A DNA stretch of 64,000 nt from Alphaproteobacteria bacterium (lineage in GTDB: Bacteria; Pseudomonadota; Alphaproteobacteria; UBA8366), in the NCBI GenBank assembly GCA_028281325.1, contig JANQKC010000026.1:1-64000 (forward strand), read 5' to 3'. A program made the translations under genes and the position numbers. Of the stretch, positions 38,312-61,175 are shown one piece after another. The notes under the pieces are model-generated. The model searched no databases and was not told the DNA's origin. It saw only the letters and a list, made by a program, of their open reading frames with translations. Within the stretch, counting starts at the first letter, position 1. Each line of letters opens with the position of its first letter.

Positions 38312-40402
38312 CTAGGCGGCGCGAACCTGAACGAGGAAGTTCTCCACCTCACCCTGCAGCGCTTCCGACTGCCGGGATAGTTCGCCGGCCGCCGACAAGA
38401 CCTCTTCGGCCGCAGACCCCGTTTCGGATGCGGACTTGGTCACTTCGGAAATCGTGTTGCTGACCTCCTCGGTGCCCGACGCGGCTTGCTGCGTATTCTC
38501 AGCGATTTCGCGCGTCGCCGACCCTTGTTGACCGACCGCGGTCGCGATCGTCTCGGCGATACCGTTGATCTCCTTGATGGTGCCGCCGATTCCGGCGATC
38601 GCCGAAACCGCATCGTCGGTGACCGATTGCATCTCGTTGATCTGAGCGGCGATTTCTTCGGTCGCCTGCGCGGTTTGATTCGCCAGGTTTTTCACCTCGG
38701 CGGCCACGACCGCGAAACCCTTCCCGGCTTCGCCGGCTCGGGCGGCCTCGATCGTCGCGTTCAACGCGAGCAGGTTGGTTTGCTCCGCGATATCGCTGAT
38801 CAGGTTCACAACCTCGCCGATCTTCTGCGCCGAATTGGCCAGACTCTGCACGGTCTGGTTCGTGTGTTCGGCCTCGCCGTTCGCCCGAGTGGCAATCTCC
38901 GTGGATTGACCGACCTGACGATTGATCTCGCTGACCGACGCCGACAATTCGTCGGCTGATGACGCCACCGCATGCACGTTCGCGGTGGCCTGCTCCGACG
39001 CGGACGCGACCAGCGCCGCCTTGCGGCTCGAATCCTGCGCCAAATGCGTCATCGATTCCGATGTCGACTGCATCTGCGTGGAAGACGACGACACCGCCTG
39101 AACGATTCCAAGCACACGCGATTGGAAGTCGTCGGCGAGCGCCTTCATGGCTTCGCGCTTTTCCTGTTCGGCGCGCTTCTCTTGATCGCGTTGCTCCGCC
39201 TCCATCTCCTTCATCTTCTTGCCATTCTGCTTGAAGACTTCGACCGCTTGCGCCATCTCGCCGATTTCGTCGCGATTGGCCAAGGCCGGCACGTCGACAT
39301 CGTAGTTTCCTTGCGCAAGATCGGTCATCGCGGCCGTCATGACGCCCACGGGCCGGGTGATGCTGCGGACGATCAAGTAACCGAGCAAGCAGCTCGCAAG
39401 CAGCGTCAAGCTCCCGAAGATCATCAAGACCTGTTGCGCCCGGGTCGCGCTTTCCTTGATCCCCTGCAGGGTCGCGATGAGATCGGCGCCGATACGGTTT
39501 TCAATGCCGCTTATAAGATCGATCTTCTTGGTGATCGTCGCAAACCAATCAGCGGGTTTGATGCCGCCGGTGCTCGCCGTTTGAACGCTATCCACCGCGA
39601 TCTTCCGCATCCGCTGGACCTCGGCTACCGCAGGGTCGGCCATCGCTTTGTCATAAGCCGCGCGTTGATCCGGACCGGCGTAGATTTGCAGTTGCGAATC
39701 GTAGATCCGCTGCGCCTCCATCTGCTTCAACATCGCCTCGATAACATGCGGCGAGAAGAACCCATCGGCGAAGCCGGCCGATCCCATGGCGCGCTCCTGA
39801 CCGGCATGTTCCTTCATATGCAGGACCGCCGTGTAGGCGATGATGGCGCGTGACACATCACCGTTCGATCCGATCAAAGCCATCTGATCGACGACGGCGA
39901 GCAGCTTATTGATCGTTTCGGTATAGACCTTGAACGTCCGCGTCATGTTCGTGGACTTGCTATTGATCTTCCCGCGGTGATCCATCAGCGCGGCAACGGC
40001 CGCGAAGGCGGTGCTCGACGATTTCGCCAGGCTGCCGCCGAAACGCTCAAGGTCCGCGGTCTTCATCGCTTCGCGGAATTCGCCTTGCCGTTCGTCGGTT
40101 TGCCGTTGCTGTGCGGGAAGCGCATCGGCGTGTTGTTTGCCTTGGCTCTTCAAGAAGGTCACCGCCATGCCGCGCTCGTTCTGCAGTTCGAACACAAGCG
40201 CGCTAATCGCCGGCGCGAGGTTTCCTAAGGTCAGCAAGACGGTTGCATCGGATTTACGCGCCCAGTCCTCCCGCATTTCCGAAACGCCGAGAAATATCGC
40301 CAGGAGGAACGGCATCGCAAGCGCGATATATATGCGTTTGCCGATATTCAGATTGCTCATTAGCCCAAAGATCTTCATTGAAGTCATCCTGCTTTCCGTC
40401 AT
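38312..40402 (-). CDS. Methyl-accepting chemotaxis protein with NIT-like sensor and HAMP domain
   Basis: [19 protein letters not shown] (NIT-like), HAMP segment, [32 protein letters not shown]. Confidence 0.92.
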
Positions 40403-40460
40403 CTCTCAAGTGAATCCATTGCCGCGGCGGGTGTCCATGCAGTCGTCACGGCGCCGCCGT

Positions 40461-40895
40461 CTAGGCCGGCCGCTTGGGCACTCCCTGGTCGCCGGCCGCT
40501 TGCGTTCGTGGTTCCGTCAGCTCTGGGTGCTGCAGCAGGTCCATCGCCTGCTTCAAGGATTCCAATTCCTCTTTTGACACCGATTCCGGTCGGTCATGGA
40601 TGGCCTCCAGCGCCACCAAGGCCCGAAATAGTTTGACCTTCAATTTGTCCGCGTGGCTCTGTTCAAACGTGTGTTCGTCGCCAGACAACGTGTCGATGAG
40701 GGTGAGGATCGCCTCCGAGGCCCGCTTCCGGGCGGTCGGGAAGGTCGCGGTCAACCCTTCGATCGCGGACTTCAATCGCTCCTCACGGTTGGGGTGAAGA
40801 AGCACCTTCTCGAACGCCGGCTTTTCATCCCGCGTGGCTGGCGCGACGGTCTCCGATGAAACCGGCGGCTTTCGCTTCGGCATTACATCAGCCAT
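40461..40895 (-). CDS. Hypothetical protein between two MCP genes
   Basis: 145-aa acidic helical ORF, same strand as the flanking MCPs. Confidence 0.6.
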   Translation of the reverse strand: MADVMPKRKPPVSSETVAPATRDEKPAFEKVLLHPNREERLKSAIEGLTATFPTARKRASEAILTLIDTLSGDEHTFEQSHADKLKVKLFRALVALEAIHDRPESVSKEELESLKQAMDLLQHPELTEPRTQAAGDQGVPKRPA

Positions 40896-40964
40896 GTCCA
40901 ACTCCTTGTGTGCGGCACGGGGTTCCAAACCCTGGCCATCCGCCCCACCAACACGAATCGACGA

Positions 40965-42317
40965 TCACGACCTGACACTCGTTAGAAACCGGTCGACTTC
41001 CCCGCGCAGCTTGTCGCCTTGCTGCGACAACTCATCCGCGGCGCCCAACACTTCCGCCGCCGACGATTGCGTTTCCGTGGTCGCGTTGCTGAGGTCCGAT
41101 ATGCTTTTGGAAACATCCTCGGCGTTGCTGGCCGCTTCCGAAACATTGCTGGCGATCTGCTGGGTCGACGCCCCTTGCTGTTCAACCGCCGCGGCGATCT
41201 CCGAGGCGGCCATGCTGATTTCCTCGATGATGCCGCCGACCTGCTCGATCGCTTCCACCGACCCTTGAATCTCGAACTGCATCGACTTGATTTGCTCGGC
41301 GATCTCCTCGGTCGCGCTCGCCGTTTGATTGGCAAGGCTTTTCACTTCCGCCGCCACCACGGCAAAGCCTTTGCCCGCTTCGCCCGCGCGCGCCGCCTCG
41401 ATCGCCGCGTTAAGCGCCAACAGATTCGTTTGTTCGGCAACGTCACTGATCAAACGAACGACCTCGCCGATTTTCTCGCCGGACGACGCCAGGTTTTGGA
41501 TCGATTCATTCGTTTGTCCCGCAGTCTCCACCGCCCTTTTGGAAATCTCGGTGGAATGCGCGACCCGCTTGCCGATCTCGGTGACGGACGCCGATAACTC
41601 CTCGGTACCGGAAGCCACGGCTTGAACCATGGAGCACGCCTGCTCGGACGCGGTTGCGACCTTGGTCGAATGCTCGCTCGTCCGGTCGGCGACCCCCGCC
41701 AGCGATTCGGCGGATGCCCGCATCTCGTCGGCCGCCGAGGAAACCGTGTCGACGACCTGTTTGACGTTGGATTCGAACTCGCCGGCCAATTCGTTCTGAC
41801 GGGCCTGCTGGTTCGATTTCCGATCCGCGGAATAGGCGCCAAGCGCCAAACTCATATCCAGGAAAAGGACCTTCGTCACCGCGCGGAACATCTCGCTGCG
41901 GTCTTTGCCGCGCCATTTCGCCGGCTTGAGCAGCAGCTCGGAGATCTTGCCAAGAATGAATCGGTAAGCCGCCATGTAGGCGCCGGGATCGAGCCCGATC
42001 CGCGCATGCGCGATACCGATTCGTTGAATCTGCGCCCGGTAGGCGTCATCGAATTGGCAGGTGAACAAAAGCCGCCAATGGGCAGCCTGGGCATCCTTCA
42101 GCCGCGCGACCGTGGCGGCGTCGCCGAAGTTCTCCTGGAGGTCCGGGAACTTCGCAACATGCGCGTAGAACGCGTCGAGCAAATCCGGAAGGTTTTCTTC
42201 GAGAATCGGCAGGAATTCCGCCAATTGCGTGCGCGTGCTCTCGTCGATTTCCAAGAAGGCAAGTTTGTTTCGCCAGGCGCCTTCAGACGGGCCTGTTTGT
42301 TCATTCGCGCTCGGCAT
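40965..42317 (-). CDS. Globin-coupled sensor methyl-accepting chemotaxis protein
   Basis: Protoglobin-like N-terminus ([50 protein letters not shown]) plus MCP signalling domain. Confidence 0.9.
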
Positions 42318-42828
42318 TCTTCCCCCAATACCACCACTAGTCTACGTGACTCTATTTAAAGTTGCTGCACTTCCGTTTATTCCCGCGGCGCGCGCAGCCC
42401 GACATAACGAATTCGAAGTGTATTGTTCCTATTGTTAATTTTGATTTAAACGTGCATCTAAATGATCTTCATTCTTGCTACGGTTATTCTGATGTGCCGG
42501 ATGAACTGCTTCTAATTCCTGACGAAATGCGACACGTATGGTGTGTGGTCCGGTGCGCATGCCGGTGGGCAGGCCGAGGTTGACAGGCCGCAAGAGAATT
42601 GAGAGACAAATATTTCTCCTTATAATTGCAACAACAGGCCGACTTAGCCATTGAAAGAGGTTTTTATAGTGCCTCGTGCAACCACCTCCGGTGTCTGAAA
42701 ACGCAAATCAATCATCGGTTGGCTCGATCTATCCGTTGCGACCCGGGCGGACGGATATATATGGTGACCTGACGCCATTCCCGGCATTCGCAGCGCAGGA
42801 CAGGACCGTGACAAAGACCAGATCACCA

Positions 42829-44058
42829 ATGCCGGATTCACCCGTGTTCGAAGACCTCGATCCGCGCCCGTCGCTCCTGATGGGGCCGGGGCCGGTGAAC
42901 GTCCACCCCCGCGTGCTGCGCGCCATGTCGATGCCGATGCTGGGCCAGTTCGATCCGCAGTTCACGCAATACATGGACGAAACCATGGCGCTGGTGCGGC
43001 GGATATTCCGGACGGAGAACCAGTGGAGCTTCCTGATCAACGGCACCGCGCGCGCGGGCATCGAGGCGGCGTTGAGTTCGCTCATCACGCCGGGGGATAC
43101 GGTCCTGGTGCCGATCTTCGGCCGGTTCGGGCATCTGCTGACGGAAATCGCCGGCCGATGCGGCGGCACTGTCGTCGCCCTCGAAACCGACTGGGGCACC
43201 GTGTTCCCGCCCCAGGTCATCGGCGCGGCGGTCGAGGAACACAAGCCGCAATTGGTCGCGATGGTGCATGGCGACACGTCGACCACGATGGCGCAGCCCC
43301 TGGACGAGATCGGGCCGATCTGCCGCGCCCATGACGCCCTGCTCTTCGTCGATACCACCGCGACCATCGGCGGCATGCCGTTCGAGGTCGACGCGTGGCA
43401 GATCGATATCGCGTCCGCCGGCCTGCAGAAATGCCTGTCGGGCCCACCGGGATCGGCGCCGATCACGTTCAATGCGCGCGTCGTCGACCGTCTGAAACAT
43501 CGCAAGCATGTCGAGGCCGGAATCCAACCGCCGGGCTTCGAACCCGGCGACGGCCCCCGCATCCAATCGAACTATTTCGACCTGCCGATGCTGATGGACT
43601 ATTGGAGCGAGGCGCGGCTCAACCACCACACCGAGTCCACGTCGATGCTCTACGCCGCGCGGGAATCGCTTCGCGTCGTTCTGGAGCAGGGACTCGAGAC
43701 CGTGTGGGCCCGTCACCGTCACGTGAGCCAAGGGCTTCGCGCCGGCCTGGAGGCAATGGGCCTTAGCTTGTACGGCGACCCGCAATACCGGATGGATAAC
43801 GTTACCGGCGTCTACATCCCGGAATCGGTCGCGGGCGATGACGTCCGAACCGCAATGCTGGAGGATTTCGGCATCGAAATCGGCACGTCGTTCGGCCCGC
43901 TGCACGGCAAGATCTGGCGTATCGGCACCATGGGGTACGTCTGCCGGCGGCAAAGCGTGCTGTCCTGTCTCGCCGCGCTCGACGTCACGCTACGCCGATA
44001 CGGCTACGACGCGCCCCCCGGCGCCGGCGTCACCGCGGCCATCGAGGTACTGGGATAA
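42829..44058 (+). CDS. Alanine/serine/ureidoglycine-glyoxylate aminotransferase family
   Basis: LLMGPGPVNVHPRVLRAMSMPMLGQFDPQF, VDTTATIGGMPFEVDAWQIDIASAGLQKCLSGPPG. Confidence 0.85.
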   Translation: MPDSPVFEDLDPRPSLLMGPGPVNVHPRVLRAMSMPMLGQFDPQFTQYMDETMALVRRIFRTENQWSFLINGTARAGIEAALSSLITPGDTVLVPIFGRFGHLLTEIAGRCGGTVVALETDWGTVFPPQVIGAAVEEHKPQLVAMVHGDTSTTMAQPLDEIGPICRAHDALLFVDTTATIGGMPFEVDAWQIDIASAGLQKCLSGPPGSAPITFNARVVDRLKHRKHVEAGIQPPGFEPGDGPRIQSNYFDLPMLMDYWSEARLNHHTESTSMLYAARESLRVVLEQGLETVWARHRHVSQGLRAGLEAMGLSLYGDPQYRMDNVTGVYIPESVAGDDVRTAMLEDFGIEIGTSFGPLHGKIWRIGTMGYVCRRQSVLSCLAALDVTLRRYGYDAPPGAGVTAAIEVLG

Positions 44059-44253
44059 TCCTCCACGGCGATCGAATCGCCGGAAAGTTGCTTAATCCTT
44101 GATCAACCGGCCCTGTTACCGGGATACTTCCTGAGCAGGATACGATGCGGCCCGACGGATCGCTTTGACGTCAGAGCCATCGCTGCACGGCAAAATGGCC
44201 CAAACGCCTTGTTTTGCCTGCGCCGCCGCATCGAAGAAGGCCACCCTCGACAA

Positions 44254-44268
44254 TGGCACGCATCTTGC
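44254..44268 (+). promoter_or_regulatory. Sigma-54 (RpoN) promoter upstream of the ABC ATPase genes
   Basis: TGGCACG-CATC-TTGC, exact -24/-12 consensus and spacing; ATG at 44321. Confidence 0.75.
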
Positions 44269-44320
44269 GCAATTCCCTGTAATTCCCCCGATCACGACGG
44301 GGTGCGCGCAAGGAGCGGAA

Positions 44321-45394
44321 ATGCCGGCCATCAACAGCCAAAACGCCAATACGGAGACGCCGCAGCGGCCCCTCCTGCAAGTGCAGAACCTTCGCAAGTA
44401 TTTTTCCACCAAACGGGCCCTGCCCGCCTTCGGCGAGTCCCCGCCCGTCCGCGCCGTCGACGGCATCTCCTTCGATGTTCAGAAGGGCGAGACCCTCGGC
44501 GTCGTCGGCGAGTCCGGATGCGGCAAGTCGACCATGGCGCGGCTGCTGATCCGCCTGATCGACCCCGACGAGGGCACGGTCATCCTCGACGGCAAGACGA
44601 TCGGCGGCCCCGGTGGCCTGCCGATCCGGGAAATGCGCAGCCGGGTCCAAATGGTATTCCAGGATAGCTATGCGTCGCTGAACCCGCGCCTGCCGATCGA
44701 AGAGTCGATCGCCTTCGGACCGATCAGCGCCGGCGTCCCGCATGACGAAGCCAATGAACGGGCCATCGCGATCCTGGCGAAAGTGGGTCTCGAACCGCGC
44801 CTGTTCGTCCATCGGTACCCGCACGAACTGTCGGGCGGTCAGCGGCAGCGGGTGAACATCGCGCGCGCCCTCGCGCTCGACCCCCGGCTACTGATCCTCG
44901 ATGAAGCGGTATCGGCGCTCGACAAGTCGGTCGAGGCGCAGGTGTTGAACCTGCTGAGCGACCTCAGGAAACAACTCGACCTCACCTATATCTTCATCAG
45001 CCACGACCTCAATGTCGTGCGCTACATCAGCGACAAGGTGATGGTGATGTATCTCGGCGAGATCGTCGAGATCGGCGATGTCGAGCAGGTCTACGAGGAC
45101 CCGCGCCATCCCTACACCAAGGCCCTGCTGATGGCACAGCCGACGATGGACCCGAACCGGCGCACCAAGGAAGCGCCGATCACCGGCGACCCGCCCAACC
45201 CGATCCGGCCGCCGTCCGGCTGCCGTTTCCACACCCGGTGCCCCTTCGCGGAGCCGGTCTGCGCGGAAAAGGTGCCGCCGCTGATCCGGGACGGCGAAGG
45301 GACCCGCCGTGTGGCCTGCCATCTGTGGCAAGAGAAGTCGGGTCATTCGAAAGCCGGCAGCGATATGGCCAAGGAGCTGTCCTATGCCGGATGA
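44321..45394 (+). CDS. Dipeptide/oligopeptide-type ABC transporter ATP-binding protein (DppF-like)
   Basis: GESGCGKSTMARLL, LSGGQRQRVNIARALALDPRLLILDEAVSALD. Confidence 0.93.
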   Translation: MPAINSQNANTETPQRPLLQVQNLRKYFSTKRALPAFGESPPVRAVDGISFDVQKGETLGVVGESGCGKSTMARLLIRLIDPDEGTVILDGKTIGGPGGLPIREMRSRVQMVFQDSYASLNPRLPIEESIAFGPISAGVPHDEANERAIAILAKVGLEPRLFVHRYPHELSGGQRQRVNIARALALDPRLLILDEAVSALDKSVEAQVLNLLSDLRKQLDLTYIFISHDLNVVRYISDKVMVMYLGEIVEIGDVEQVYEDPRHPYTKALLMAQPTMDPNRRTKEAPITGDPPNPIRPPSGCRFHTRCPFAEPVCAEKVPPLIRDGEGTRRVACHLWQEKSGHSKAGSDMAKELSYAG

Positions 45395-46391
45395 CCGCGA
45401 TATTCTGCTCGACGTCCGCGACCTGCATGTGAAATTCGTCTCGCGCGAACGCACGGTTCACGCGGTCAACGGCGTATCCTTCGAACTGGAGCGCGGCGAA
45501 GTCCTCGGCATTCTCGGCGAATCCGGCTCCGGCAAGAGCGTGACGCTGCGGTCGATTCAAAAGCTGCTGCCGCCTCGCAACGCCGTCCTCAGCGGGTCGA
45601 TATGGCTTGACGGCGAAGATGTCCTGACCATGCCCCGCAAACAGCTCGCGGAGTTGCGCGGCTCGGACGTCTCGATGATCTTTCAGGAACCGGCCACCGC
45701 TTTCGACCCGGTCTATACGATCGGCGACCAAATCTGCGAAACGATCGTGCATCATGAAGGCATCAGCCAAAGCGAGGCCCGGGCCCGCGCGCTTGAGCTG
45801 CTCGAACTCGTGCGCATTCCGTCGGCCAAGCAACGGCTCGATACCTATCCGCATGAAATGTCCGGCGGCATGCGGCAGCGGGCGATGATCGCGCTGGCCT
45901 TGTCCTGCCGGCCGAAGTTGTTGCTCGCGGACGAGCCGACCACGGCCTTGGACGCCACGGTGCAGATCCAAGTGCTGCTGCTGCTCGCCCAACTGCAGGA
46001 AGAACTGGGCCTCAGCATCATCTTCGTCACCCATGACGTGGGAGTGGCCATCGAGGTGTCGTCGCGGCTCGCCGTCATGTATGGCGGCCAGATCGTCGAG
46101 ACGGGTCCGCTTGCGGAAGTCGTGCAATCGCCGGTGCATCCGTATACGCAAGGGTTGCTGGCCTCGACCATTCACAGCGCCTCGCGCGGCCATCGCCTGG
46201 AAGCGATCCCGGGGTCGCCGCCCAATCTCGAAGCGCCGCCCACGAAATGCACCTTCGCGCCGCGCTGTCCCTATGTCGAGGCCGCCTGCACGGCGGCGGT
46301 GCCGCAATTGGAACCGCTCTCCGACCACCGGGCGGTCCGCTGCATCCGCAGCGAAGTGGGACAGGCCTCCGCGGCCTTCGCCGGAAATTAA
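45384..46391 (+). CDS. Dipeptide/oligopeptide-type ABC transporter ATP-binding protein (DppD-like)
   Basis: GESGSGKSVTLRSI, MSGGMRQRAMIALALSCRPKLLLADEPTTALD. Confidence 0.93.
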   Translation: MPDDRDILLDVRDLHVKFVSRERTVHAVNGVSFELERGEVLGILGESGSGKSVTLRSIQKLLPPRNAVLSGSIWLDGEDVLTMPRKQLAELRGSDVSMIFQEPATAFDPVYTIGDQICETIVHHEGISQSEARARALELLELVRIPSAKQRLDTYPHEMSGGMRQRAMIALALSCRPKLLLADEPTTALDATVQIQVLLLLAQLQEELGLSIIFVTHDVGVAIEVSSRLAVMYGGQIVETGPLAEVVQSPVHPYTQGLLASTIHSASRGHRLEAIPGSPPNLEAPPTKCTFAPRCPYVEAACTAAVPQLEPLSDHRAVRCIRSEVGQASAAFAGN

Positions 46392-46407
46392 ATTGCGCTA
46401 GAGGTTG

Positions 46408-47793
46408 TTAGATCGGGGGCTTGCGGCCCAGATCGCCGCGCGCAGTTTCGAAGGCATGCCCGGCCCGCAGGACAACATCATCCTCGAACGCCTTGCCGGC
46501 GAGCTGGAACCCGATGGGCAACCCCGAGTCCGCGAACCCGGCGCAGAGCGTCACCGCCGGCTGCCCCGTCACATTGAACGGCATGGTCGGATAGGGTTTG
46601 CCGAAGAAGGGGAAGGACCGCTGTGAATCGGCGAAGGATTCCGCTGGCCCGTATTGGTTCGCGGTCAGCAGGATATCCACATCGGCCATCGCCGCCGACA
46701 TGGCCGTGGTCAACCGCTGACGCATGCGCTGCGCTTCGACATAGTCGCGCGCGCTGATGAACGCGCCGAGCCGCGCCCGGTCGCGGAAGTATTCGCCGTA
46801 TCTCTCCGGCGTCTCCGCCAGCGACCGGCGATGGATGGTATAGGCTTCGCTCAGAATGATAAGACGGCCGCAGGCGTGACAATCGCGGATGTCCGGCAGA
46901 TCGATATCCTGCACGGCCATTCCGGCGCCTTTCAGATGATCGACCGCACTCTCCAGCGCCGCCAGCGTTTCGGCGTCCACACCGTCGAACCAGGCGCGCG
47001 CGACGCCGACCCGCAACCCGGCGGCGGGTTTCGCCAAGGATGCGGCGAAGTCCGGCACCGGGGTGTCGACGGAGCCCGCGTCCTCGGGATCGTAACCCGA
47101 CAACGCCTGCATCATGTGGGCGCAGTCTTCGACCGTGCGCGTCATCGGTCCGGCGTGATCCAGCGTCCAACTCAGCGGATAGATGCCCCGGCGGCTGATC
47201 CGCCCGTAGCTCGGCTTCAGCCCGACGATCCCGCACACGCCCGCCGGGCCGCGGATCGATCCGCCGGTGTCGGACCCCATCGCGCCGGCGCACTGACCCG
47301 ACGCGACCGCGGCGCCGGAACCGCTCGACGAACCGCCGGGTATGTGATCCAGGTTCCAAGGGTTCCGCGCGGGCGGCCACGGCAGGTCGAAGGAGGGGCC
47401 GCCGAAGGCGAATTCATGCGTCGCCAGCTTCCCCACGATAACGGCGCCCGCCGCCTTGAGTTTTGCCACCGAGACCGCGTCTTCGGCGGGCACGTTGTTC
47501 TCCAGCAGCCGCGAATGACAGGTCGTCCGAACGCCCGCCGTGGAGTAGATGTCCTTCAGCGCCAAGGGCACGCCATGCAACGGCCCCTTCCAGCCGCCGG
47601 CCGCGATCTCGCGATCCGCATCGTCGGCCGCCGCCAAGGCGTCGTCGTTCAGAACGGTGATGAAGCTTTTCAGCGCCTCGTCGGTCGTATCGATCCGCGC
47701 CAGGCTCGCCTCCACCAGGTCCCGGCTTTTCAGGTCGCCCGCGCGGATGCGGTCGCCCGCGTCCGCGATCGTGAGGTAATGCAGGTCCGTCAT
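46408..47793 (-). CDS. Amidase (amidase signature family, AtzE/GatA-like)
   Basis: GPLHGVPLALKDIYSTAGVRTTCHS, IPGGSSSGSGAAVASGQCAGAMGSDTGGSIRGPAGVCGIVGLKPSYGRISRRG. Confidence 0.93.
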   Translation of the reverse strand: MTDLHYLTIADAGDRIRAGDLKSRDLVEASLARIDTTDEALKSFITVLNDDALAAADDADREIAAGGWKGPLHGVPLALKDIYSTAGVRTTCHSRLLENNVPAEDAVSVAKLKAAGAVIVGKLATHEFAFGGPSFDLPWPPARNPWNLDHIPGGSSSGSGAAVASGQCAGAMGSDTGGSIRGPAGVCGIVGLKPSYGRISRRGIYPLSWTLDHAGPMTRTVEDCAHMMQALSGYDPEDAGSVDTPVPDFAASLAKPAAGLRVGVARAWFDGVDAETLAALESAVDHLKGAGMAVQDIDLPDIRDCHACGRLIILSEAYTIHRRSLAETPERYGEYFRDRARLGAFISARDYVEAQRMRQRLTTAMSAAMADVDILLTANQYGPAESFADSQRSFPFFGKPYPTMPFNVTGQPAVTLCAGFADSGLPIGFQLAGKAFEDDVVLRAGHAFETARGDLGRKPPI

Positions 47794-47999
47794 CGGACCA
47801 CCCGCGACGACGGCTCCTGGAAGACCAATGCCGGTTCGTCCGCCATGGCCGGGTCTTCGGGCAACCGGGCGAGCAGCGTTTGCAGGCCGATATACCCTTC
47901 GCGCATACGCTCCTTCTCGGCGGGGTCGAGCGTCAACCCCGCCGCCTCGGCCAGTTTCTCGAACGCCTCGGCGGTAATCTCGGGCTTATCACTGCTCAT
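47790..47999 (-). CDS. DUF4089 (AtzG/GatC-like) small subunit
   Basis: MSSDKPEITAEAFEKLAEAAGLTLDPAEKERMREGYIGLQTLLARL; overlaps the amidase start by 4 bp. Confidence 0.8.
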   Translation of the reverse strand: MSSDKPEITAEAFEKLAEAAGLTLDPAEKERMREGYIGLQTLLARLPEDPAMADEPALVFQEPSSRVVR

Positions 48000-48010
48000 C
48001 GGTTCTCCCC

Positions 48011-48910
48011 TTAAAGCTTGACGTCCATCGCGGTGCGCAGGCCGTCGCTCATGAGATTGAAGCACATGCCGGTCACGAAGATCATGACGCCGGGCAAGGC
48101 GGCGTTGACCGGCGCGACATAGATCGACTGGCGCAGCGTGTTCAGCATCAGGCCCCAATCCGCCTCGGGCGGCGTGACGCCGAGACCGAGAAAGCTCAGC
48201 CCCGACGCGATGATGATGCTGACGCTGACCAGGCTGGACGCGTAGATCAACACCGGCCCCAATACATTGCCCAAGACATGGACGCGCAATATTCGGAAAG
48301 TGCCCGCCGGGGTCGCGCGCGCCGCCGCGACGAAATCCAGGTTCCGCACCTGCGTCGTGACAGTTTCCGCGACACGGCAGATCGGCGGCACGAAGATCAA
48401 GGTCAGCGACAGGACCGCGTTCAGGATACCGCCCCCCAACGCCCCGGATATCGCGATGGCGAGCAGGATCGACGGAAAGGCGTAGAAGACGTCGGTCGTC
48501 CGCATGATGATCATGTTGACCCGCCCGCCGACAAACCCGGCGATGATGCCCAAGGTGCCGCCGACCACCAGCGCCGTGAAGACCGGCGCGATCGCGGTAA
48601 ACAACGAGACCCGGCCGCCATAGATCAACCGGGTCAGCATGTCGCGGCCCAGTTCGTCGGTGCCCAGCAGGAAGCCGTCCGTCCCGATCGGGGCCAGCCG
48701 TTTCAGCATGCTCGTCTTGTAAGGATCGTGCGGCGCGATCCAGGGCGCGAAAACCGCCGCGAGCAGGATGATCATCACGATCACGGCGCAAACGATGGTG
48801 ATGGGATCGTGGCTCAGCCGCGTGAAGACGCTGCCCCAATACCCCCGGCGCGCGGCCACGAAGGCCGGCGCTTCGGTGCGGTCGTCGACGGGCGTGGCGG
48901 TTGTGGTCAT
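48011..48910 (-). CDS. ABC transporter permease (DppC-like)
   Basis: ELGRDMLTRLIYGGRVSLFTA..., FVAAARATPAGTFRILRVHVLGNVLGPVLIY. Confidence 0.93.
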   Translation of the reverse strand: MTTTATPVDDRTEAPAFVAARRGYWGSVFTRLSHDPITIVCAVIVMIILLAAVFAPWIAPHDPYKTSMLKRLAPIGTDGFLLGTDELGRDMLTRLIYGGRVSLFTAIAPVFTALVVGGTLGIIAGFVGGRVNMIIMRTTDVFYAFPSILLAIAISGALGGGILNAVLSLTLIFVPPICRVAETVTTQVRNLDFVAAARATPAGTFRILRVHVLGNVLGPVLIYASSLVSVSIIIASGLSFLGLGVTPPEADWGLMLNTLRQSIYVAPVNAALPGVMIFVTGMCFNLMSDGLRTAMDVKL

Positions 48911-48942
48911 GGCAATTCGTTTCCCAAATTCACTGTTATCGG

Positions 48943-49893
48943 CTACCGCTTGATCCGCGGATCGAGCGTCGCCTGCACGATATCAACGGTCAGGTTCAAG
49001 GCGACGAAGATCAAGGCGAGCGCCAGGATCGTGCCTTGCAGCACCGGGATATCGCGCGAGAAGATCGCGTTGTTGAGAAGCAGGCCCGTGCCGGGCCAGG
49101 CGAAAACCGTTTCGATCAGGATCGAGCCGCCGAGCAGATAGCCGAGCTGCAGCCCCATCACGGCGAGCACCTGCGGCGCCGCGTTCTTGGTGACATGCTT
49201 GATCACCTTAGCCTCGCTCAACCCTTTCGAGCGCAGCGCCTCGACGAACTCCATGTTCAGCAGTTCGGCCACCGCGCCACGCACCGTTCGCGTCACGATG
49301 CCGGCCGGAATCACCGACAGCGCGATGACCGGCAGGACGAGATGCTGGAAATTCTCGGCGGAGAAGGTGAACTCGGTCGACCCGCTGGCGGTCATGCCGA
49401 GCGACGGCAGGACGGCCAACTCGACCGAAAAGATAATGACCAGAACGATGGCGAGCCAGTAATGCGGCACGCTGACGCCGGTGATCGCAAGGGCGGTGAA
49501 CATCCGGTCGGCCGGACGGCCGTGGTAGTAGCCCGCCAATCCGCCCAGCACGACACCGACGATAAACCCGAGCATCGCCCCGCCGATCGCGAGGATCAAA
49601 CTGTTGACCAGCGACGGCCCCAACTCGACCAAGACCGGACGCCCGGTGACGATGGACGTGCCGAAATCGCCGATCAGGGCCTTGCCGAGCCAGACCGCGT
49701 ATTGCACCGGCAACGGCTTGTCGAGGCCGTATTCCGCCTTGATCCGGTCGATGACTTCCTGCGGCGCATCCTCCGGCAGGATCGAACTGAGCGGATCGCC
49801 GGGGCCGATGTAAACGAGCGAGAAACAAACGACGGTCACGCCAAGCGCGATCGGAATGACGTAAAGCAGACGTCGCAGAATATAGATAAGCAA
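48943..49893 (-). CDS. ABC transporter permease (DppB-like)
   Basis: MLIYILRRLLYVIPIALGVTVVCFSLVYIGPGDPL..., LRSKGLSEAKVIKHVTKNAAPQVLAVM. Confidence 0.93.
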   Translation of the reverse strand: MLIYILRRLLYVIPIALGVTVVCFSLVYIGPGDPLSSILPEDAPQEVIDRIKAEYGLDKPLPVQYAVWLGKALIGDFGTSIVTGRPVLVELGPSLVNSLILAIGGAMLGFIVGVVLGGLAGYYHGRPADRMFTALAITGVSVPHYWLAIVLVIIFSVELAVLPSLGMTASGSTEFTFSAENFQHLVLPVIALSVIPAGIVTRTVRGAVAELLNMEFVEALRSKGLSEAKVIKHVTKNAAPQVLAVMGLQLGYLLGGSILIETVFAWPGTGLLLNNAIFSRDIPVLQGTILALALIFVALNLTVDIVQATLDPRIKR

Positions 49894-49973
49894 TGCCGGT
49901 CTCCCCTACTGAAACCAGTATCGAGAAATCCCGGCCGGCGGCGCGCTACCGCACCACCGGCCGGATCGAAACG

Positions 49974-51635
49974 CTATTTCTCGATCGAGATCGGCGTCAG
50001 GTCCTGGAACCAGCTCTTGGCTTGCACGAAGCCCTTCACATGCGGGGCCAAGGCGCGCGGGTTCACGTCATGCGTGACCCAAATCCATTGCGCGTTGTCG
50101 ACCGCATGCTCGTGAACTTGGCGCAGGATCGCATTCTGCTGCTCCTCGTCGAAGGTGTTCGCCGCCTTGGCGAGCATCTCGTCGTAGAAGGGTTCCTTCA
50201 GCATGCCCCAGTTCGACCCCGCGGGCGAAATCCGCGAGCTGAGGAAGAACCGCTCGAACCCGCTATACGGATCCTGCAACGCATGGCTGACGATCACCGC
50301 GTTCACGTTTTTCGACGTGGCGATCTTGTCGTCGGCCGGCTTCCGGTGGAAGGCGGTCAACGCATTCCATTCCATGACCTCGGCCTCGACGTTGAAGAAG
50401 CACTCGTTGAGGTTCGCCTGCAGGAATTCGAACATCGGCAAGGGCTGCATCTGGCCCGATCCGCTCGTCGAGATCGCGATCTTGACCGTCAGCGGCTTCT
50501 CCGCGCTGTGGCCGGCGTCGGCCATCAGCTTACGAGCCTCGTCGGGCTTGTAGCCAAGCTTGAACGTCGGGTTGCCGAACCACGTGTCACCCGGCGGCAC
50601 ATGTCCTTCGGCCGGCACGCTGAGGCCGCCCAGCATCTTGTTCATGCCCTGACGGTCGATACAGAGATTGGCCGCCTTACGGACGCGCACGTCGTTCCAC
50701 GGCGAACCTTTGATCCGGCTCGGCTTGATCGCCCAGTTATGCGGATACGCATTCGTGACGATCTGCATCCCGGCGGATTTCAGGCGCGGCACCGCATCCG
50801 GCGGCGGCGCTTCGACGAAGTCCACCTGCCCCGACAGCAACGCGGCGACGCGGGCCGACGGTTCCGGGATCGGGCGCAGGATCACGCGATCCACCTTCGG
50901 CACCCGCTTCGGGTTCCAATAGTCCTTGTTGGCCTCCATTTCGACCTTGGCGCGCTGCGTCTGGCTGACGAATTTCCACGGCCCGGTCCCGGACGGGTTT
51001 TTCGCGAATTCCGCCCAACTGCCCACCTTCTCCCAATGTTCCTGACTCGACATGAACCAGAAACTGACCTGGTAGGGCACATAGGCGCTCGGCTCTTTGG
51101 TCAGGATTTCGACGGTATGGTCGTCGATCTTGTTCACCTGATCCAGCGCGGGAATGCGAACCGCAACCAAGGCCGCCTGTTTCGCTTCATACTGCGGCGC
51201 CTTCGTGTCTCGAACTTTCTGGAAATTCCAGACCACGTCATCGGCGGTGAAATCGCTGCCGTCGTGGAACTTTACGCCTTTGCGCAGATTGAAAATCCAA
51301 CGCTTGCTGTTCTCCGGGTCGACGGACCAACTCTCCGCCAGTCCGGGCATCAGGCCGGCCGATTCCTTGTCCTTGGACAGATCCCAAAGCACCAAGGTGT
51401 CGTAAAGCATGTAGCCCATGAACCGGAATCCTTCGAATCCCTGGTCGGGCTGGCCGATATTGATTGGAATGTCCGAAGCGGTCATCGCGACCCGCAGCAC
51501 CTTGTCGGCCGCCTGAAGCGAGTGCGTGCCAAGCCCGGCCGCCGCGGCAACGGCAAGGATACCCAACGACGCCGTCCGCAGCCGGCGGACAAAGGTCGGC
51601 TTCTTTTTTAACGGGGGTCTCACTGGAGACATCAT
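49974..51635 (-). CDS. ABC transporter substrate-binding protein, family 5
   Basis: Signal peptide; LAESWSVDPENSKRWIFNLRKGVKFHDGSDFTADDVVWNFQKV. Confidence 0.93.
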   Translation of the reverse strand: MMSPVRPPLKKKPTFVRRLRTASLGILAVAAAAGLGTHSLQAADKVLRVAMTASDIPINIGQPDQGFEGFRFMGYMLYDTLVLWDLSKDKESAGLMPGLAESWSVDPENSKRWIFNLRKGVKFHDGSDFTADDVVWNFQKVRDTKAPQYEAKQAALVAVRIPALDQVNKIDDHTVEILTKEPSAYVPYQVSFWFMSSQEHWEKVGSWAEFAKNPSGTGPWKFVSQTQRAKVEMEANKDYWNPKRVPKVDRVILRPIPEPSARVAALLSGQVDFVEAPPPDAVPRLKSAGMQIVTNAYPHNWAIKPSRIKGSPWNDVRVRKAANLCIDRQGMNKMLGGLSVPAEGHVPPGDTWFGNPTFKLGYKPDEARKLMADAGHSAEKPLTVKIAISTSGSGQMQPLPMFEFLQANLNECFFNVEAEVMEWNALTAFHRKPADDKIATSKNVNAVIVSHALQDPYSGFERFFLSSRISPAGSNWGMLKEPFYDEMLAKAANTFDEEQQNAILRQVHEHAVDNAQWIWVTHDVNPRALAPHVKGFVQAKSWFQDLTPISIEK

Positions 51636-51766
51636 CTAACTACTCCCTGAGATTGATTTTAGACTGTCGGATTCCCTCCCGAGGTATCTTGTTTTTCTTG
51701 TGTGCGCGGGAAAACGGCGCACTTGTGCGCAACCTTCTAGAGAGTCGCTTCATTCTAATCATGTTT

Positions 51767-51781
51767 GCAGCAAGCGTGCCA
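51767..51781 (-). promoter_or_regulatory. Candidate sigma-54 promoter upstream of the substrate-binding protein operon
   Basis: Minus strand TGGCACG-CTTG-CTGC, one mismatch to TGGCACGNNNNTTGC, correct GG/GC spacing. Confidence 0.5.
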
Positions 51782-52981: not shown

Positions 52982-55959
52982 ATGGCATGCAGGGCAGCGG
53001 CAGCGGCCGCCTGTCGTTGATGATCGACCTAGAACGCTGCATCGGCTGCAAAAGCTGCGAAGTCGCGTGCAAGCAGGAACACGGGCTCGGCCCGGGCGAG
53101 TACCGCAACAAGGTGGTCTGGCTCGGCAACGAGACCGCACCGGCGCTCGACTTCCTGACCGTCACCTGCCAGCACTGCGACCGCCCAGCCTGCCTGCGCG
53201 CCTGCCCGGTCAATCCGAAGGCGATCGAGAAAGACCCCGTCACCGGCGTGGTCAAAGTCAACGAGGACCGCTGCACCGGCTGCGGCGAGTGCGTCATCGC
53301 CTGCCCCTACGGCGCGATGGGCTATGACGCCGCGGGCCATCACGCGGTGAAATGCGACCTGTGTTCCGACCGCCGCGCGAACGGCCAAGGCCCCGCCTGC
53401 GCCAGCGTGTGCCCCGGCCACGCGATCAGCTTCGGCGAACGCCAGGACCTGGTGGCCATGGCGTTGGAAGAAGACCGCACGATCCGCGACAACGATCACT
53501 TCCTGATGGGCCCGGGCACGGTCTATCTGGACCGTATCCCGCGCCCCGAGTCCGACGCCTTCGGCGCCTTGGCGCACGATCAGGACCCGATCGCGGACCG
53601 CACGCCGCCCGCCTTCATGGACTCCGCCGCGGCCAAGGAGTCGGTGGCGGACGTCGGCGCGGAGTATCCCTACGGCCAGCCGCGCGCGGACCGCACCGCC
53701 GACCGGATGGAACCCGGCGGCTGCAACCTCTGCTTCAACTGCTGCAGCACCCAGTTCCATTTCAAGGGCGACCGGTTGGTGCGGATCACCGGCAACGACA
53801 CCGACCCGGTCTTGAAAGGCAAGGTCTGCCCGAAGTCGCAATTGACGCTGCAGCTCTACCACAACGACAAGCGCCTGACGCAACCGCTCAAGCGGGTCGG
53901 CGCGCGCGGCGAGAACAAGTTCGAGCCGATCGGCTGGGACCAGGCGCTCGACGAGATCGCGGAAAAAATGAAATCGGTGCGCGACGAGTTTGGCCCCGAG
54001 GCGCTGGCCCTCTACGTCGGCACGCGGACCGGCATCCTGACCAAGAACGGCTATTCGCGGCTGTTCGCCCAGATGTGGGGCACGCATAACTTCGAAGGCA
54101 CCGACCCCTTCTGCGCCGCCGGGAAGAACCTGTCCTACATGATGACCCAGGGCACCATCGGCAGCGGCAACAGCTATACGCCGGAAGACATCGGCAGCGC
54201 CGAACTCTACGTCTATGTCGGCGACAACCAGGGTGAGACGCGGCCGGTCTATTTCGGCATGGTCAACGACTGGCGCATCCGCAACAAGGCGAAGATGGTC
54301 GTCGTGGACCCGCGCCTGACGGTGACGGCGAGCAAGGCCGACCGCTGGCTGCCGATCCGGCCCGGCACGGACATGGCGCTCGGCCTCGCCCTGTCGCACC
54401 ACATTCTGACCAACGACCTGCACGACCGCGCGTTCTGCGACGACTGGGTGTTGGGGTGGGAGAACTGGCGCGACCAGATCATCGAGAAGGGCTATACGGC
54501 AGACTGGGCCGCGCCGATCACCGGCATCCCGGCGGACGACATCCGCCGGCTCGCGGAGGAGATCGCGGGCGCCGACGGCTGCGTGATGTTCGCCAGCCGC
54601 GGCGTCAACCAGCACACCAACTCGGTGCAGTCCAACCGGACGCTGATGTATGTGATGGCGATTACCGGCAATTGGGGCCGCCAAGGCGGCGCGTTCTTCA
54701 ACATGTCCGCCGGCCCGCCCGTGGCGGCAAACGCACCGGCCGACCGCCGCCCGGCCATCGAGAAACCGATGATCCGGAAAAGCCCGGTGGGCTGGACCGA
54801 GGCCATGCGCCAGGGCAAACCATATCCTTTGAAGGCGATGATCGCCTGCAACAACCCGCTCGGCCAATGGCCCAACCAGGACGAGTCGCGCGACGCCCTG
54901 TTGGCGCTCGACCTGTTGGTGCATATCGAACTCTTCCCGAACGAAACCACCGCCTTCGCCGACTACGTGCTGCCCGCTGCGGCCGGGATCGAAAAGGGCG
55001 AAATCGGCCGGTCGAACGACGATCGCCGCGTCGTCTGGATCGACCGCATGATCGATCCGCCGGGCGAGGCCAAGCCCGACGGCTGGATCTGGATCGAACT
55101 GGGCAAGCGGTTCGGCTTCGACGACGTGTTGCAGGAGAAGTACAAGGACTCCGCCGTCTTCTGGGACGAGATGTGCATCGACAATGACCATCTGCGCGGC
55201 GTCACGCAGAAGCGGCTGCATTCGACACCCTATCGCTGGGTACGGTTCCCCGTCGCGACTGAGGACGCACCGGAACAGGATACCCTATATCTCGAAGGGA
55301 CCACCGCCGTCGGCAAACCGGAAGGGACGCGCTTCCCCACACCCAGCGGCAAGCTCGAATTCTGGACGCCGGACCTGGAGGAGAAATTCACGACGCTCGG
55401 CCTATCCGCCGTGCCGGAATTCTATAGCGAGCGCGAGCAGTTGATGGACCTGCCCTATTTCCAACGGACCGAGGGCGACGATACGGCGAGCGTTCTGTCG
55501 CCCTTCTATAAGGTGCCGACCCATGCCAACAAGGGCGAGATCGTGGCGCCGGGGAACCAGTCGCCGGGTATCGAATTACGGGCGCAGGGCTTCGACACCG
55601 AACTGGTCACGGGCCGGCCGCCAGCGCCGCATTTCCATAGCTGGACGCATTACTTCTGGCAGGCGCAGGAGATGTGGCCCGATCTCTACGTGCAGATCCA
55701 CCCGGACCGGGCGAAGGAGCACGGCATCGAGGACGGCGCGCGGGTCCGCATCGAAACGTCGCACGGGGAGATCGAGGCGGTCGCCTGGCTGCATGCGGGG
55801 ATCCGGCCGACCGCGGTCTTCATCCCCATCGGTTGGGGCGAACGGCAGCCGTTCCATCCATGGCGGTCGGTCAACTTCCTGACCGACAAGACCCAACGCG
55901 ATCCGATCTCGGATCAGACCAACCTGAAGACGTTGTTATGCCGGATTTCGCCCGCGTAA
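52957..55959 (+). CDS. Fusion of a DmsB-like 4x[4Fe-4S] ferredoxin and a molybdopterin oxidoreductase catalytic subunit
   Basis: N-terminal CIGCKSCEVACKQEHG, CQHCDRPACLRACP, CTGCGECVIACPYGA; then CNLCFNCC...GKVCPKSQL and molybdopterin-binding domains in a single frame; start is the first plausible ATG. Confidence 0.88.
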   Translation: MVAYNAMVDGMQGSGSGRLSLMIDLERCIGCKSCEVACKQEHGLGPGEYRNKVVWLGNETAPALDFLTVTCQHCDRPACLRACPVNPKAIEKDPVTGVVKVNEDRCTGCGECVIACPYGAMGYDAAGHHAVKCDLCSDRRANGQGPACASVCPGHAISFGERQDLVAMALEEDRTIRDNDHFLMGPGTVYLDRIPRPESDAFGALAHDQDPIADRTPPAFMDSAAAKESVADVGAEYPYGQPRADRTADRMEPGGCNLCFNCCSTQFHFKGDRLVRITGNDTDPVLKGKVCPKSQLTLQLYHNDKRLTQPLKRVGARGENKFEPIGWDQALDEIAEKMKSVRDEFGPEALALYVGTRTGILTKNGYSRLFAQMWGTHNFEGTDPFCAAGKNLSYMMTQGTIGSGNSYTPEDIGSAELYVYVGDNQGETRPVYFGMVNDWRIRNKAKMVVVDPRLTVTASKADRWLPIRPGTDMALGLALSHHILTNDLHDRAFCDDWVLGWENWRDQIIEKGYTADWAAPITGIPADDIRRLAEEIAGADGCVMFASRGVNQHTNSVQSNRTLMYVMAITGNWGRQGGAFFNMSAGPPVAANAPADRRPAIEKPMIRKSPVGWTEAMRQGKPYPLKAMIACNNPLGQWPNQDESRDALLALDLLVHIELFPNETTAFADYVLPAAAGIEKGEIGRSNDDRRVVWIDRMIDPPGEAKPDGWIWIELGKRFGFDDVLQEKYKDSAVFWDEMCIDNDHLRGVTQKRLHSTPYRWVRFPVATEDAPEQDTLYLEGTTAVGKPEGTRFPTPSGKLEFWTPDLEEKFTTLGLSAVPEFYSEREQLMDLPYFQRTEGDDTASVLSPFYKVPTHANKGEIVAPGNQSPGIELRAQGFDTELVTGRPPAPHFHSWTHYFWQAQEMWPDLYVQIHPDRAKEHGIEDGARVRIETSHGEIEAVAWLHAGIRPTAVFIPIGWGERQPFHPWRSVNFLTDKTQRDPISDQTNLKTLLCRISPA

Positions 55960-55975
55960 CGCGGACATGATCTCG

Positions 55976-58900
55976 TCAGGCCGGCGCGGCCGGTTGAGCG
56001 GCGGCGGCGTTGACGGATGCGACCGGCCGCATGCGGGTCAGGATCAGGAAGGCCTGAGGCACGAAGAAGAAAGACACCACCGTCGACAACAAGACGCCGC
56101 CGGCAATCGTCGTCGCGAAGGGTGGCCACATGCCGCCGTCCGACAGGATGAGCGGGAAGAAGCCGCCGAAGGTCGTGATCGTCGTCGATGTGATATGCCG
56201 GCTGGTCTCCAGCACACCTTGCTTGATTGCCTCGACATCACCAGCGACCGCCCGCGGGTCCCGTTTGAGCCCGGTGAGGATAATGATCGCCGCGTTGATC
56301 GCCACGCCGACCAATCCCAATAGCGCAATGATCGGCTGGAAGCCGAACGGAAAGCCGCCGAGGGTCAGACACAGCAGCCCAAGCCCCATCGACAGGAAGG
56401 CAACGAAGAAAACCACGCCGCTGAGACGGAAGGAATTGAAGGTCAGCACGACCGTGGCGATCATCAACAGGACGATCAGCGTCACCGAACTCAACAGATT
56501 GCCGATCGCGTCGGACCGCGCCTCGGCATCGCCGCCGAACTCATAGCGGTACCCCGGCGGCAGCGTGTAGCCGGCGGCTTCCCACAGGGATTCGAATTTC
56601 GCGATCGCGGTGGACGGAAGTTGCCCGGCCTGAACATAGCCCGATACGATGTTCACCCGGCGTCCTTGGTATCGCTCCAGCGTGCTGGCTTCCGGCTCCA
56701 GCACGATATCGCCCAATGCACGGATTGGCGTCGCTTGAAAATCCACCGATCCGCCCGGCGCCTCCCGCGACAGGATATTCAGCGAGGCCAGTTCGTCGAA
56801 GCGCGCGCGCTGTTCGTCGTCCAAGCGCACCCGGATCGGCAGTTCCTCGGTTCCCTCGACAATCGTGCCGCCGATGGTGCCTTCGAGCTGACTGTCCAGG
56901 TCCCGGGCAATATCGACCAGCGACAAACCCGCCTGCCGCGCCTGATCCTCGTCGGCGTTGAGCCACAATTTGGGTTCACCCCCCGGTATACCGGCAAAGG
57001 TGTGGGTGACCTCGGGCACTTGCGCGAGCAAGGCCCGCGCCTTCTCGCCGATCCCCTGAAGCACGCGCAGGTCCTTGCCGTAGATGCGCAGTTCGATCGG
57101 CGCATGTGTCGGCGGCCCTTGCAGCAGTTGCCGGACGACGATCTGCGAGTCGGGAAAAGCGGCGCTCAACTGCCGCTGCACCGCATTGATCTGTTCCTTC
57201 AAACCGCGCAGCCGCGTGGCCGTGACCATGGCTTCGGCATAGTTGGAGACGCCGTCCTGGTTCATCTGCATGTTGTAGTAAAAACTCGGCGCGCTATTGC
57301 CGAGAAACCATGACACGGACTCCACGTCCTCGCGACCCTGGATCAGATCGGTCGCTTTCCTGACGTCCTGGAGCGTGCGCTCGATCGAACTTTGAGGCGG
57401 CAGGCGCATTTCGACATGAAACTGCTTTCGATCCGCCTCCGGGAAGAACTGCGTCGGCAGGGTGGTTGCGCCGACGATACCGAGCAATGGCAGAACCATC
57501 GCCGCCATCATCGAAACAATTGGCGCCTTGAGGCTCCACCCCAACACGGCGTCGAACGCGCCGGCAAGGCGCGGGAGAGTCAGCCCGGCCGCCCAGAAAG
57601 AATTGCGTCCCTCCGCCGCCGTCTTGAGGCCGCCCGGCAGGAAAACGCCGTTGAGCGCCGCGACCACGGTGATCGCCAACAGGAAGGACGCGGTGAGCGC
57701 CGTGATGACCGCCGCCGCGATCGGCCCGACGAACTCACCGGCGCCGCCCGGCATCAAGGTGATCGGCGCGAAGGCGAGGACCGTCGTCACTGTGGAACTC
57801 AACAACGGCAACCAAAGCCGGCTGACCGACACGCCGACTGCATCTCGTGGGCTGAGTCCATCGACCAGGCGGCGGCGGATTGCATCGGTCATCACGATGG
57901 CGGCGTCGACCAGCAGACCGAGCGCGACCATCAACCCGATGACGGACATCTGATGGATGGGGATTCCCATCACATTCAGCACGATCAACGACGTGAGGGC
58001 AGTCAGCGGGATCGCAGCCGTGACGATCAGCGCCGAGCGCCACCCGAGCGTGATGAACAGCACCACGACAACGAGGGCCGCGCCGATCATGAGGTTTTTC
58101 ACCAATGTACCGAACCGGGCCGACGCGTATTCGTTTTGGTCGAAGACGACCTCCAACGCCACGCCGCCCGACAGGTCCTGTTCGAAGGTCTTCAACGCAC
58201 CGCGCGCCGCGGCGGCCCAACTGCTGACCCGAAGGTCCGATTCCATCCGCGCCGCCACGATCACCGCCGGCTTGCCGCCGACCAGCACCAAGTCGTCGGG
58301 CGGCGACGCAAGCCGCCGATCCACGCGCGCGATATCGCCGACCCGCACAATACCGCCATCGGCGTTGCGCCGCACCGGCACCTCGCGCAGCCGGGCCAGC
58401 GTGTTCAGTTCGCCGCGGACTTCCAGCACATATTCGTTGATACCGCCCCGGAACTGCCCGGCCGAAACCTTCGAATCCGCCGCGGCGATGGCGCGCGCGA
58501 TGGACTGCTTGTCGAGCGTCAGGGATTCCGCGATGGCCGAGTCGACGGAGACCACCACTTCCTCGGCGGGCGCACCGTGGATCGTGACCAGTTCCGTCCC
58601 GGGCACGTCACGCAACGTATCCTGCAGATCCTCGGCAATCCGCTTCAGGATCAAGACGTTGGGGGCGCTGTCCGCATCCCAGACTAGCGCCGCCATCATG
58701 GTATAGGCGTAGCCCCGGTCGTCGTCGAAGACGGGCGACGGCACCCCGCCGGGGAAATTCGACTCGGCATCGCTCAAGGCGTCGCGAATACGGGAGAACG
58801 GACCGTCCGTTTCGTAGACATCGTCATCCAATTCGACGGTCACGACCGAGATACCGGTGCGCGAAAAGGACCGGATCTTCTTGATCTCCGACAGCTCGCG

Positions 58901-60968: not shown

Positions 60969-60973
60969 TCTCC

Positions 60974-61020
60974 AATCTTGACAGCATCAAGATAGCGCGA
61001 ATATTGACGCTGTCAAGATT
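60974..61020. promoter_or_regulatory. TetR operator region (paired inverted pseudo-palindromes)
   Basis: AATCTTGACAGC ... N23 ... GCTGTCAAGATT perfect 12-bp inverted repeat directly upstream of tetR. Confidence 0.7.
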
Positions 61021-61175
61021 GATTTCGATCCTCCAAGACGTATCGCGTATCGACCCGGCTACGCCCCATACGGTAAGCGACGGCCTTGGCGGCCAGACCC
61101 AAATACGGCTGAAACAAGCGTCATGCGCCCTCCGATGAAGACGCAAAGTGGCCCCGATGGTTTAAAAAATGTAAT

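What the first reader, a model, noticed from the sequence alone, without database searches (positions are those of the whole stretch)
42829..51781. Convergent two-arm nitrogen-scavenging system with sigma-54-type promoters on both arms
A Dpp-type ABC transporter is split: ATPases on + (44321-46391), and permeases plus SBP on - with an amidase and AtzG-like DUF4089 subunit. Upstream of the ATPase arm is an exact TGGCACG-N4-TTGC (44254); upstream of the SBP arm is TGGCACG-N4-CTGC on the minus strand (51767-51781). A glyoxylate aminotransferase-family gene lies upstream of the + arm. This suggests an RpoN/NtrC-controlled uptake and hydrolysis pathway for an amide- or ureide-type nitrogen compound of unknown identity.
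Basis: partly seen in the sequence, partly recalled or inferred. Interest (0 to 1): 0.7.

Follow-up and report, generated by a model that had tools for sequence, protein, structure and literature searches.

The report
Sigma-54-controlled amide-nitrogen uptake island
A block of eight kilobases, probably acquired from another bacterium, carries an importer and a two-part amide-splitting enzyme, each strand switched on by the nitrogen-starvation type of promoter; the kind is known, but the compound it scavenges is not, and the neighbouring aminotransferase is not part of it.

Summary
The DNA observations hold. Convergent arms carry Dpp-type ATPases (+, 44321-46391) and SBP, two permeases, a small subunit and an amidase (-, 46408-51635). 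The two sigma-54 boxes are the two best matches in the whole 64 kb. They are real by footprinting: in relatives the box recurs in 15 of 21 SBP leaders and 4 of 4 ATPase leaders that head an arm, against 1 of 18 and 0 of 15 internal gene starts (the 1 is itself a first gene). The genome has RpoN and NtrBC/NtrYX. The interpretation needs two corrections. First, the aminotransferase is ureidoglycine-glyoxylate aminotransferase (HpxJ/PucG family) but is not part of the system: a sister species keeps it beside the same right-hand operon without the 8-kb block, it lacks a sigma-54 box, and none of the module's relatives carry it. Second, the small subunit matches no Pfam DUF4089 model; its predicted fold resembles GatC, and it precedes 49 of 57 close amidase homologues. 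Best reading: a probably horizontally acquired, nitrogen-regulated importer plus GatC/GatA-like (AtzGE-type) amidase that takes ammonia from an imported amide or ureide. Sigma-54 control of Dpp-type transporters is already published: a variant of a known kind. Substrate unknown; direct NtrC control not shown.

The parts
44254..44269 (+). sigma-54-type -24/-12 box of the ATPase arm, TGGCACGCATCTTGCG, about 67 bp before the start codon
   Evidence: (17.5 bits, p=0.005); counterparts in L001, L003 and L004 at 39-46 bp
44321..45394 (+). DppF/OppF-type ABC ATPase
45384..46391 (+). DppD/OppD-type ABC ATPase, overlapping the preceding gene by 11 bp
   Evidence: ORF
46408..47793 (-). amidase-signature hydrolase, GatA/AtzE-like, with putative triad K80, S155 (cis-Ser), S179
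47790..47999 (-). 69-aa GatC/AtzG-like small subunit, 4-bp ATGA overlap with the amidase
48011..48910 (-). OppC/DppC-type permease
48943..49893 (-). OppB/DppB-type permease
49974..51635 (-). family-5 solute-binding protein of unknown ligand
51766..51781 (-). sigma-54-type -24/-12 box of the SBP arm, TGGCACGCTTGCTGCA, about 146 bp before the start codon
   Evidence: (17.1 bits, p=0.005); counterparts in L001, L005, L006, L009, L041, L043, L058, L089-L092, L096, L097, L142, L143
44060..52105 (.). approximate extent of the block absent from the sister species G001
   Evidence: edges approximate to within about 60 bp
42829..44058 (+). ureidoglycine-glyoxylate aminotransferase; neighbour, NOT part of the module
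   Evidence: HpxJ 3nnk 498 bits, PucG 3isl 468 bits

Best explanation
The 8-kb block between the aminotransferase gene and the molybdopterin-oxidoreductase operon is a probably horizontally acquired nitrogen-scavenging module. A family-5 binding protein captures a small amide- or ureide-type compound. Two OppB/OppC-type permeases and two Dpp-type ATPases import it intact. A cytoplasmic Ser-cisSer-Lys amidase, probably held in active form by a GatC/AtzG-like 69-residue partner, hydrolyses a carboxamide or carbamoyl group and releases ammonia. Both arms start at sigma-54 promoters, so the two halves of one transporter are switched on together, most plausibly by NtrC or NtrX under nitrogen limitation. 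Shown by sequence: gene content, layout, conserved boxes, conserved gene pair, presence/absence relative to the sister species. Inferred: enzyme activity, heterodimer, ammonia as product, the activator, the substrate class.
For: Sigma-54 boxes conserved at the heads of arms and absent at internal genes (SBP leaders 15/21, ATPase-arm leaders 4/4, PermB 1/18, DppD 0/15; in Stella, where the arm starts with another amidase pair, the box precedes that pair). Same convergent layout in Filomicrobium L001 and the same with inserts in Stella L003/L004; these and the window form a 100/100 clade. Block absent in sister species, whose own SBP lies outside that clade. rpoN present; dusB-ntrB-ntrC-ntrY-ntrX cluster. 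Small subunit: top nine fold matches are all transamidosome chains, GatC first, best probability 0.99; found before 49 of 57 amidases of 45% or more identity and in 0 of 92 reverse-strand controls (24 small-subunit sequences were used to build the profile). Triad motifs present. Relatives add asparaginase, isochorismatase-family hydrolase, a second amidase, Asp/Glu racemase. Precedent: PMC12316311 lists Dpp-type transporter COGs and hydantoin racemase as sigma-54 targets; PMC13207237 reports atzE and dpp genes down in an rpoN mutant.
Against: No NtrC-type dyad in either leader, so the activator is a guess. Small-subunit fold matches are above the usual E threshold (best 0.09), the small subunit hits no Pfam family, and the sequence profile against PDB found GatC only at E=0.15 among noise. 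The amidase scores below every NCBIfam cut-off, so its reaction is not assigned. The SBP is most similar to haem, agrocinopine and dipeptide binders at only 114-136 bits, which does not identify a ligand. Six of 21 SBP leaders lack the box (two of them because SBP is not first in the arm). Gain versus loss of the block is inferred from one sister species and one tree.
Confidence: 0.72

Rival explanations
1. One reading: aminotransferase, transporter and amidase form one ureide pathway, as in Klebsiella hpx, with ureidoglycine aminotransferase taking the product of uptake and hydrolysis.
For: The aminotransferase is a ureidoglycine-glyoxylate aminotransferase by sequence. [quoted passage not shown] The genome holds dispersed allantoate amidohydrolase-like, PuuE-like and AllFG-like genes.
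Against: Sister species has the aminotransferase without the block; no sigma-54 box before it but a sigma-70-like TTGAGA-16-TATAAT at 42599-42626; none of the module's relatives carries it; in same-family genome G009 the orthologue sits in its own allantoin-to-oxamate cluster with a different transporter.
Confidence: 0.12
2. An ordinary dipeptide or oligopeptide importer with an unrelated amidase next to it.
For: Transporter proteins belong to the Dpp/Opp/Nik superfamily; family-5 binding proteins often bind peptides.
Against: None of the transporter proteins reaches any NCBIfam Dpp, Opp, Gsi or Nik cut-off (SBP 100 bits against 1005 for DppA). Amidases of this type recur beside this transporter clade in several genera, with sigma-54 boxes.
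Confidence: 0.1
3. The sigma-54 boxes are chance matches and the arms are expressed from other promoters.
For: No genome-wide enrichment of the pattern; two hits are what shuffles of the window give.
Against: Conserved in leaders of arm-heading genes across genera, absent from internal starts; also in rhizobial plasmid relatives L142/L143; no sigma-70-like site in either leader.
Confidence: 0.05

Closest known systems
AtzG-AtzE (1-carboxybiuret hydrolase complex, Pseudomonas sp. ADP) and the related HpxX-HpxY of Klebsiella (the latter from own knowledge)
   Same: Small non-catalytic subunit gene directly before an amidase-signature hydrolase gene; both related to GatC-GatA (PMC6219798)
   Different: Amidase below the AtzE cut-offs (304 against 461; 297 against 426 bits); no AtzH next to it; partner not matched by Pfam DUF4089
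GatC-GatA of the tRNA amidotransferase
   Same: Best PDB match of the amidase (293 bits) and best fold of the small subunit
   Different: No GatB gene in the block; below the GatA cut-off (328 against 481); sits with a transporter
DppABCDF/Opp/Nik peptide and nickel ABC importers
   Same: Domain architecture of all five transporter proteins
   Different: No subfamily cut-off met; ATPases split off on the opposite strand with their own sigma-54 promoter
Rhizobial sigma-54-preceded SBP-BCFD-Asp/Glu racemase-RpiR clusters (R. johnstonii 3841 pRL12, A. tumefaciens plasmid)
   Same: Homologous transporter (SBP 51-53%) and a sigma-54-type box in the SBP leader
   Different: Single operon, racemase and RpiR regulator instead of the amidase pair
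Klebsiella hpx / Bacillus puc ureidoglycine aminotransferase
   Same: The neighbour at 42829-44058
   Different: Not a part of the module

Membership tests
sigma-54-dependent transcription unit | GG and GC at -24/-12 with the right spacing, in the leader | tested here: met
sigma-54-dependent transcription unit | RpoN encoded in the genome | tested here: met
sigma-54-dependent transcription unit | upstream enhancer site of a known activator (NtrC) | tested here: inconclusive
   none significant in the window; p=0.01 and 0.03 in L041 and L043
AtzE family amidase | NCBIfam AtzE score above cut-off | tested here: not met
AtzE family amidase | Ser-cisSer-Lys triad | tested here: met
   (K80, S155, S179 by motif)
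AtzG / DUF4089 | Pfam DUF4089 match | tested here: not met
AtzG/GatC-like partner subunit | GatC-like fold and gene directly before the amidase | tested here: met
   fold match is by rank and probability, E=0.09
AtzG/GatC-like partner subunit | needed for solubility or activity of the amidase | not testable with these tools
   needs co-expression
Dpp dipeptide importer | NCBIfam DppA/B/C/D/F cut-offs | tested here: not met
ureidoglycine-glyoxylate aminotransferase (neighbour) | full-length similarity to HpxJ/PucG above other aminotransferases | tested here: met
   498 and 468 bits, next best 300
ureidoglycine-glyoxylate aminotransferase (neighbour) | allantoin-pathway context of orthologues | tested here: met
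   orthologue in G009 beside a polysaccharide-deacetylase-family (PuuE-like) gene, Asp/Glu/hydantoin racemase, M20, AllG and a CoA-ligase-domain (AllF-like) gene

The most novel reading that the evidence does not exclude
The window, Filomicrobium and Stella carry a distinct, mobile variant in which one ABC importer is split into two convergent arms, each with its own conserved sigma-54 promoter, serving an uncharacterised GatC/GatA-type amidase that acts on a nitrogen compound not yet known to be a bacterial nutrient.
Probability: 0.3. Interest if true: 0.55.

Novelty: new variant of a known kind. Interest (0 to 1): 0.36.

Why it matters
It ties a widespread, unassigned GatC/GatA-type amidase pair (found from Alphaproteobacteria to Chloroflexota) to nitrogen-starvation control and to a specific importer. 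That gives a concrete handle, the binding protein and the amidase, for identifying an organic nitrogen source that bacteria scavenge. It also shows how a neighbouring purine-pathway gene can mislead annotation when an island has landed beside it.

Tried and rejected
Aminotransferase as a module member: rejected. Motif count alone as evidence: rejected, not above chance. Pfam DUF4089 for the small protein and its relatives: no match. PDB profile search for the small subunit: GatC only at E=0.15 among calmodulin-like noise; the fold search did better. NtrC enhancer scan: nothing in the window. Rfam: nothing. Ligand from SBP sequence: only distant haem, agrocinopine and dipeptide binders. Canonical urate pathway: no OHCU decarboxylase. 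Papers on this cluster itself: none found in the searches made.

Full report
What is there. On the + strand two ABC ATPases (44321-45394, 45384-46391); converging on them from the - strand a family-5 binding protein, two permeases, a 69-aa protein and an amidase (51635 down to 46408). The two 3' ends lie 16 bp apart. None of the proteins reaches an NCBIfam cut-off for a named Dpp, Opp, Nik, GatA or AtzE subfamily, so the parts are relatives of known kinds without an assigned function.

Sigma-54 boxes. On their own they would be unconvincing: shuffles of the window give two such matches on average, and across the 5.12-Mb genome the pattern is rarer than its reversed control. Three results make them convincing. 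With a 16-column matrix they are the best two of the whole window. Each beats all 200 shuffles of its own leader. And in relatives the box stands before the gene that heads an arm and not before internal genes: SBP leaders 15 of 21, ATPase leaders 4 of 4, against PermB 1 of 18 (the one being L009, where PermB is itself first) and DppD 0 of 15, at p of 0.01 or less (0.025 for one ATPase leader). In the two Stella genomes, where the arm begins with an extra small-subunit/amidase pair, the box stands before that pair. Rhizobium and Agrobacterium plasmid relatives show it too, Haematobacter does not. The genome encodes one RpoN and a dusB-ntrB-ntrC-ntrY-ntrX cluster. No NtrC-type dyad was found in the window's leaders, so the activator remains inferred.

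The amidase pair. The amidase keeps the lysine, cis-serine and serine motifs of the amidase-signature family. The 69-aa protein matches no Pfam family. A model from 24 relatives (mean pLDDT 80) has transamidosome chains, GatC first, as its first nine PDB fold matches, best probability 0.99, E 0.09. A profile of the family finds it directly upstream of 49 of 57 amidase genes with at least 45% identity and in none of 92 reverse-strand controls; 24 small-subunit sequences were in the profile's training set, and a few loci are held twice. AtzG is an obligate, non-catalytic partner of AtzE, and that pair is thought to descend from GatCA (PMC6219798); the same relation is the simplest reading here.

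The aminotransferase. It is a ureidoglycine-glyoxylate aminotransferase by sequence (HpxJ 498 bits, PucG 468 bits, next best 300). In same-family genome G009 its orthologue lies among a polysaccharide-deacetylase-family gene of the PuuE type, an Asp/Glu/hydantoin racemase, an M20 amidohydrolase, AllG and an AllF-like gene, which fits an allantoin-to-oxamate route. In this genome counterparts of several of those genes are scattered over other contigs. In the sister species G001 the aminotransferase (93% identical) is followed within about 140 bp by the same molybdopterin-oxidoreductase operon that stands to the right of the module here; the 8-kb block is missing. The gene has no sigma-54 box but a sigma-70-like site, and no relative of the module carries it. 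It is a neighbour.

Origin. The window's binding protein groups with Filomicrobium (82% identity) and then Stella, both forks fully supported, while five genomes of its own family, the sister species among them, carry more distant homologues outside that clade. Exactly those four genomes share the convergent split layout. Horizontal acquisition is the simplest account; loss in the sister is not excluded.

Function. Relatives of the module add other enzymes that release or handle nitrogen: a second amidase with its own small subunit, asparaginase, isochorismatase-family hydrolases nearest to RutB, M20 hydrolases, luciferase-like monooxygenases, and in rhizobia an Asp/Glu racemase with an RpiR regulator. 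That fits an amide or ureide substrate but does not name one. A published survey already lists the Dpp-type transporter COGs and hydantoin racemase among sigma-54 targets in Proteobacteria (PMC12316311), and an rpoN mutant of Bradyrhizobium lowers dpp genes and atzE (PMC13207237). The finding is therefore a variant of a known kind, with an unknown substrate as its open question.

Noticed in passing
G000:C9:24987-26350 (L160): Orthologue (77%) of the M20 amidohydrolase of the G009 allantoin cluster, with a sigma-54-like box (TGGCCCGGGTATTGCT, 14.5 bits) within about 85 bp upstream.
   Followed up: partly
L101, L102 (G008, G009): Compact allantoin-to-oxamate-type cluster around the aminotransferase orthologue; in L102 with an NMT1-type ABC transporter.
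   Followed up: partly
window 38394-42732 and 55956-61160: Two further segments without a match at this locus in the sister species: methyl-accepting chemotaxis-type genes (assigned by reading) and an RND efflux pump with its membrane-fusion protein.
   Followed up: partly
window 53026-55956: Single 977-aa frame with ferredoxin-type 4Fe-4S domains followed by molybdopterin oxidoreductase domains.
   Followed up: no
L006: Contig labelled Solirubrobacterales carries a transporter/amidase cluster that groups with Thalassobaculum and has a sigma-54-type box; possibly misbinned.
   Followed up: no
L008-L031 (mostly Chloroflexota/SAR202): The amidase with its GatC-like small subunit is common in SAR202-type Chloroflexota, mostly without the linked transporter.
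   Followed up: partly
G000:C24:193626 and G000:C24:205908: The only other exact TGGCACG-N4-TTGC matches in the genome; what they precede was not examined.
   Followed up: no
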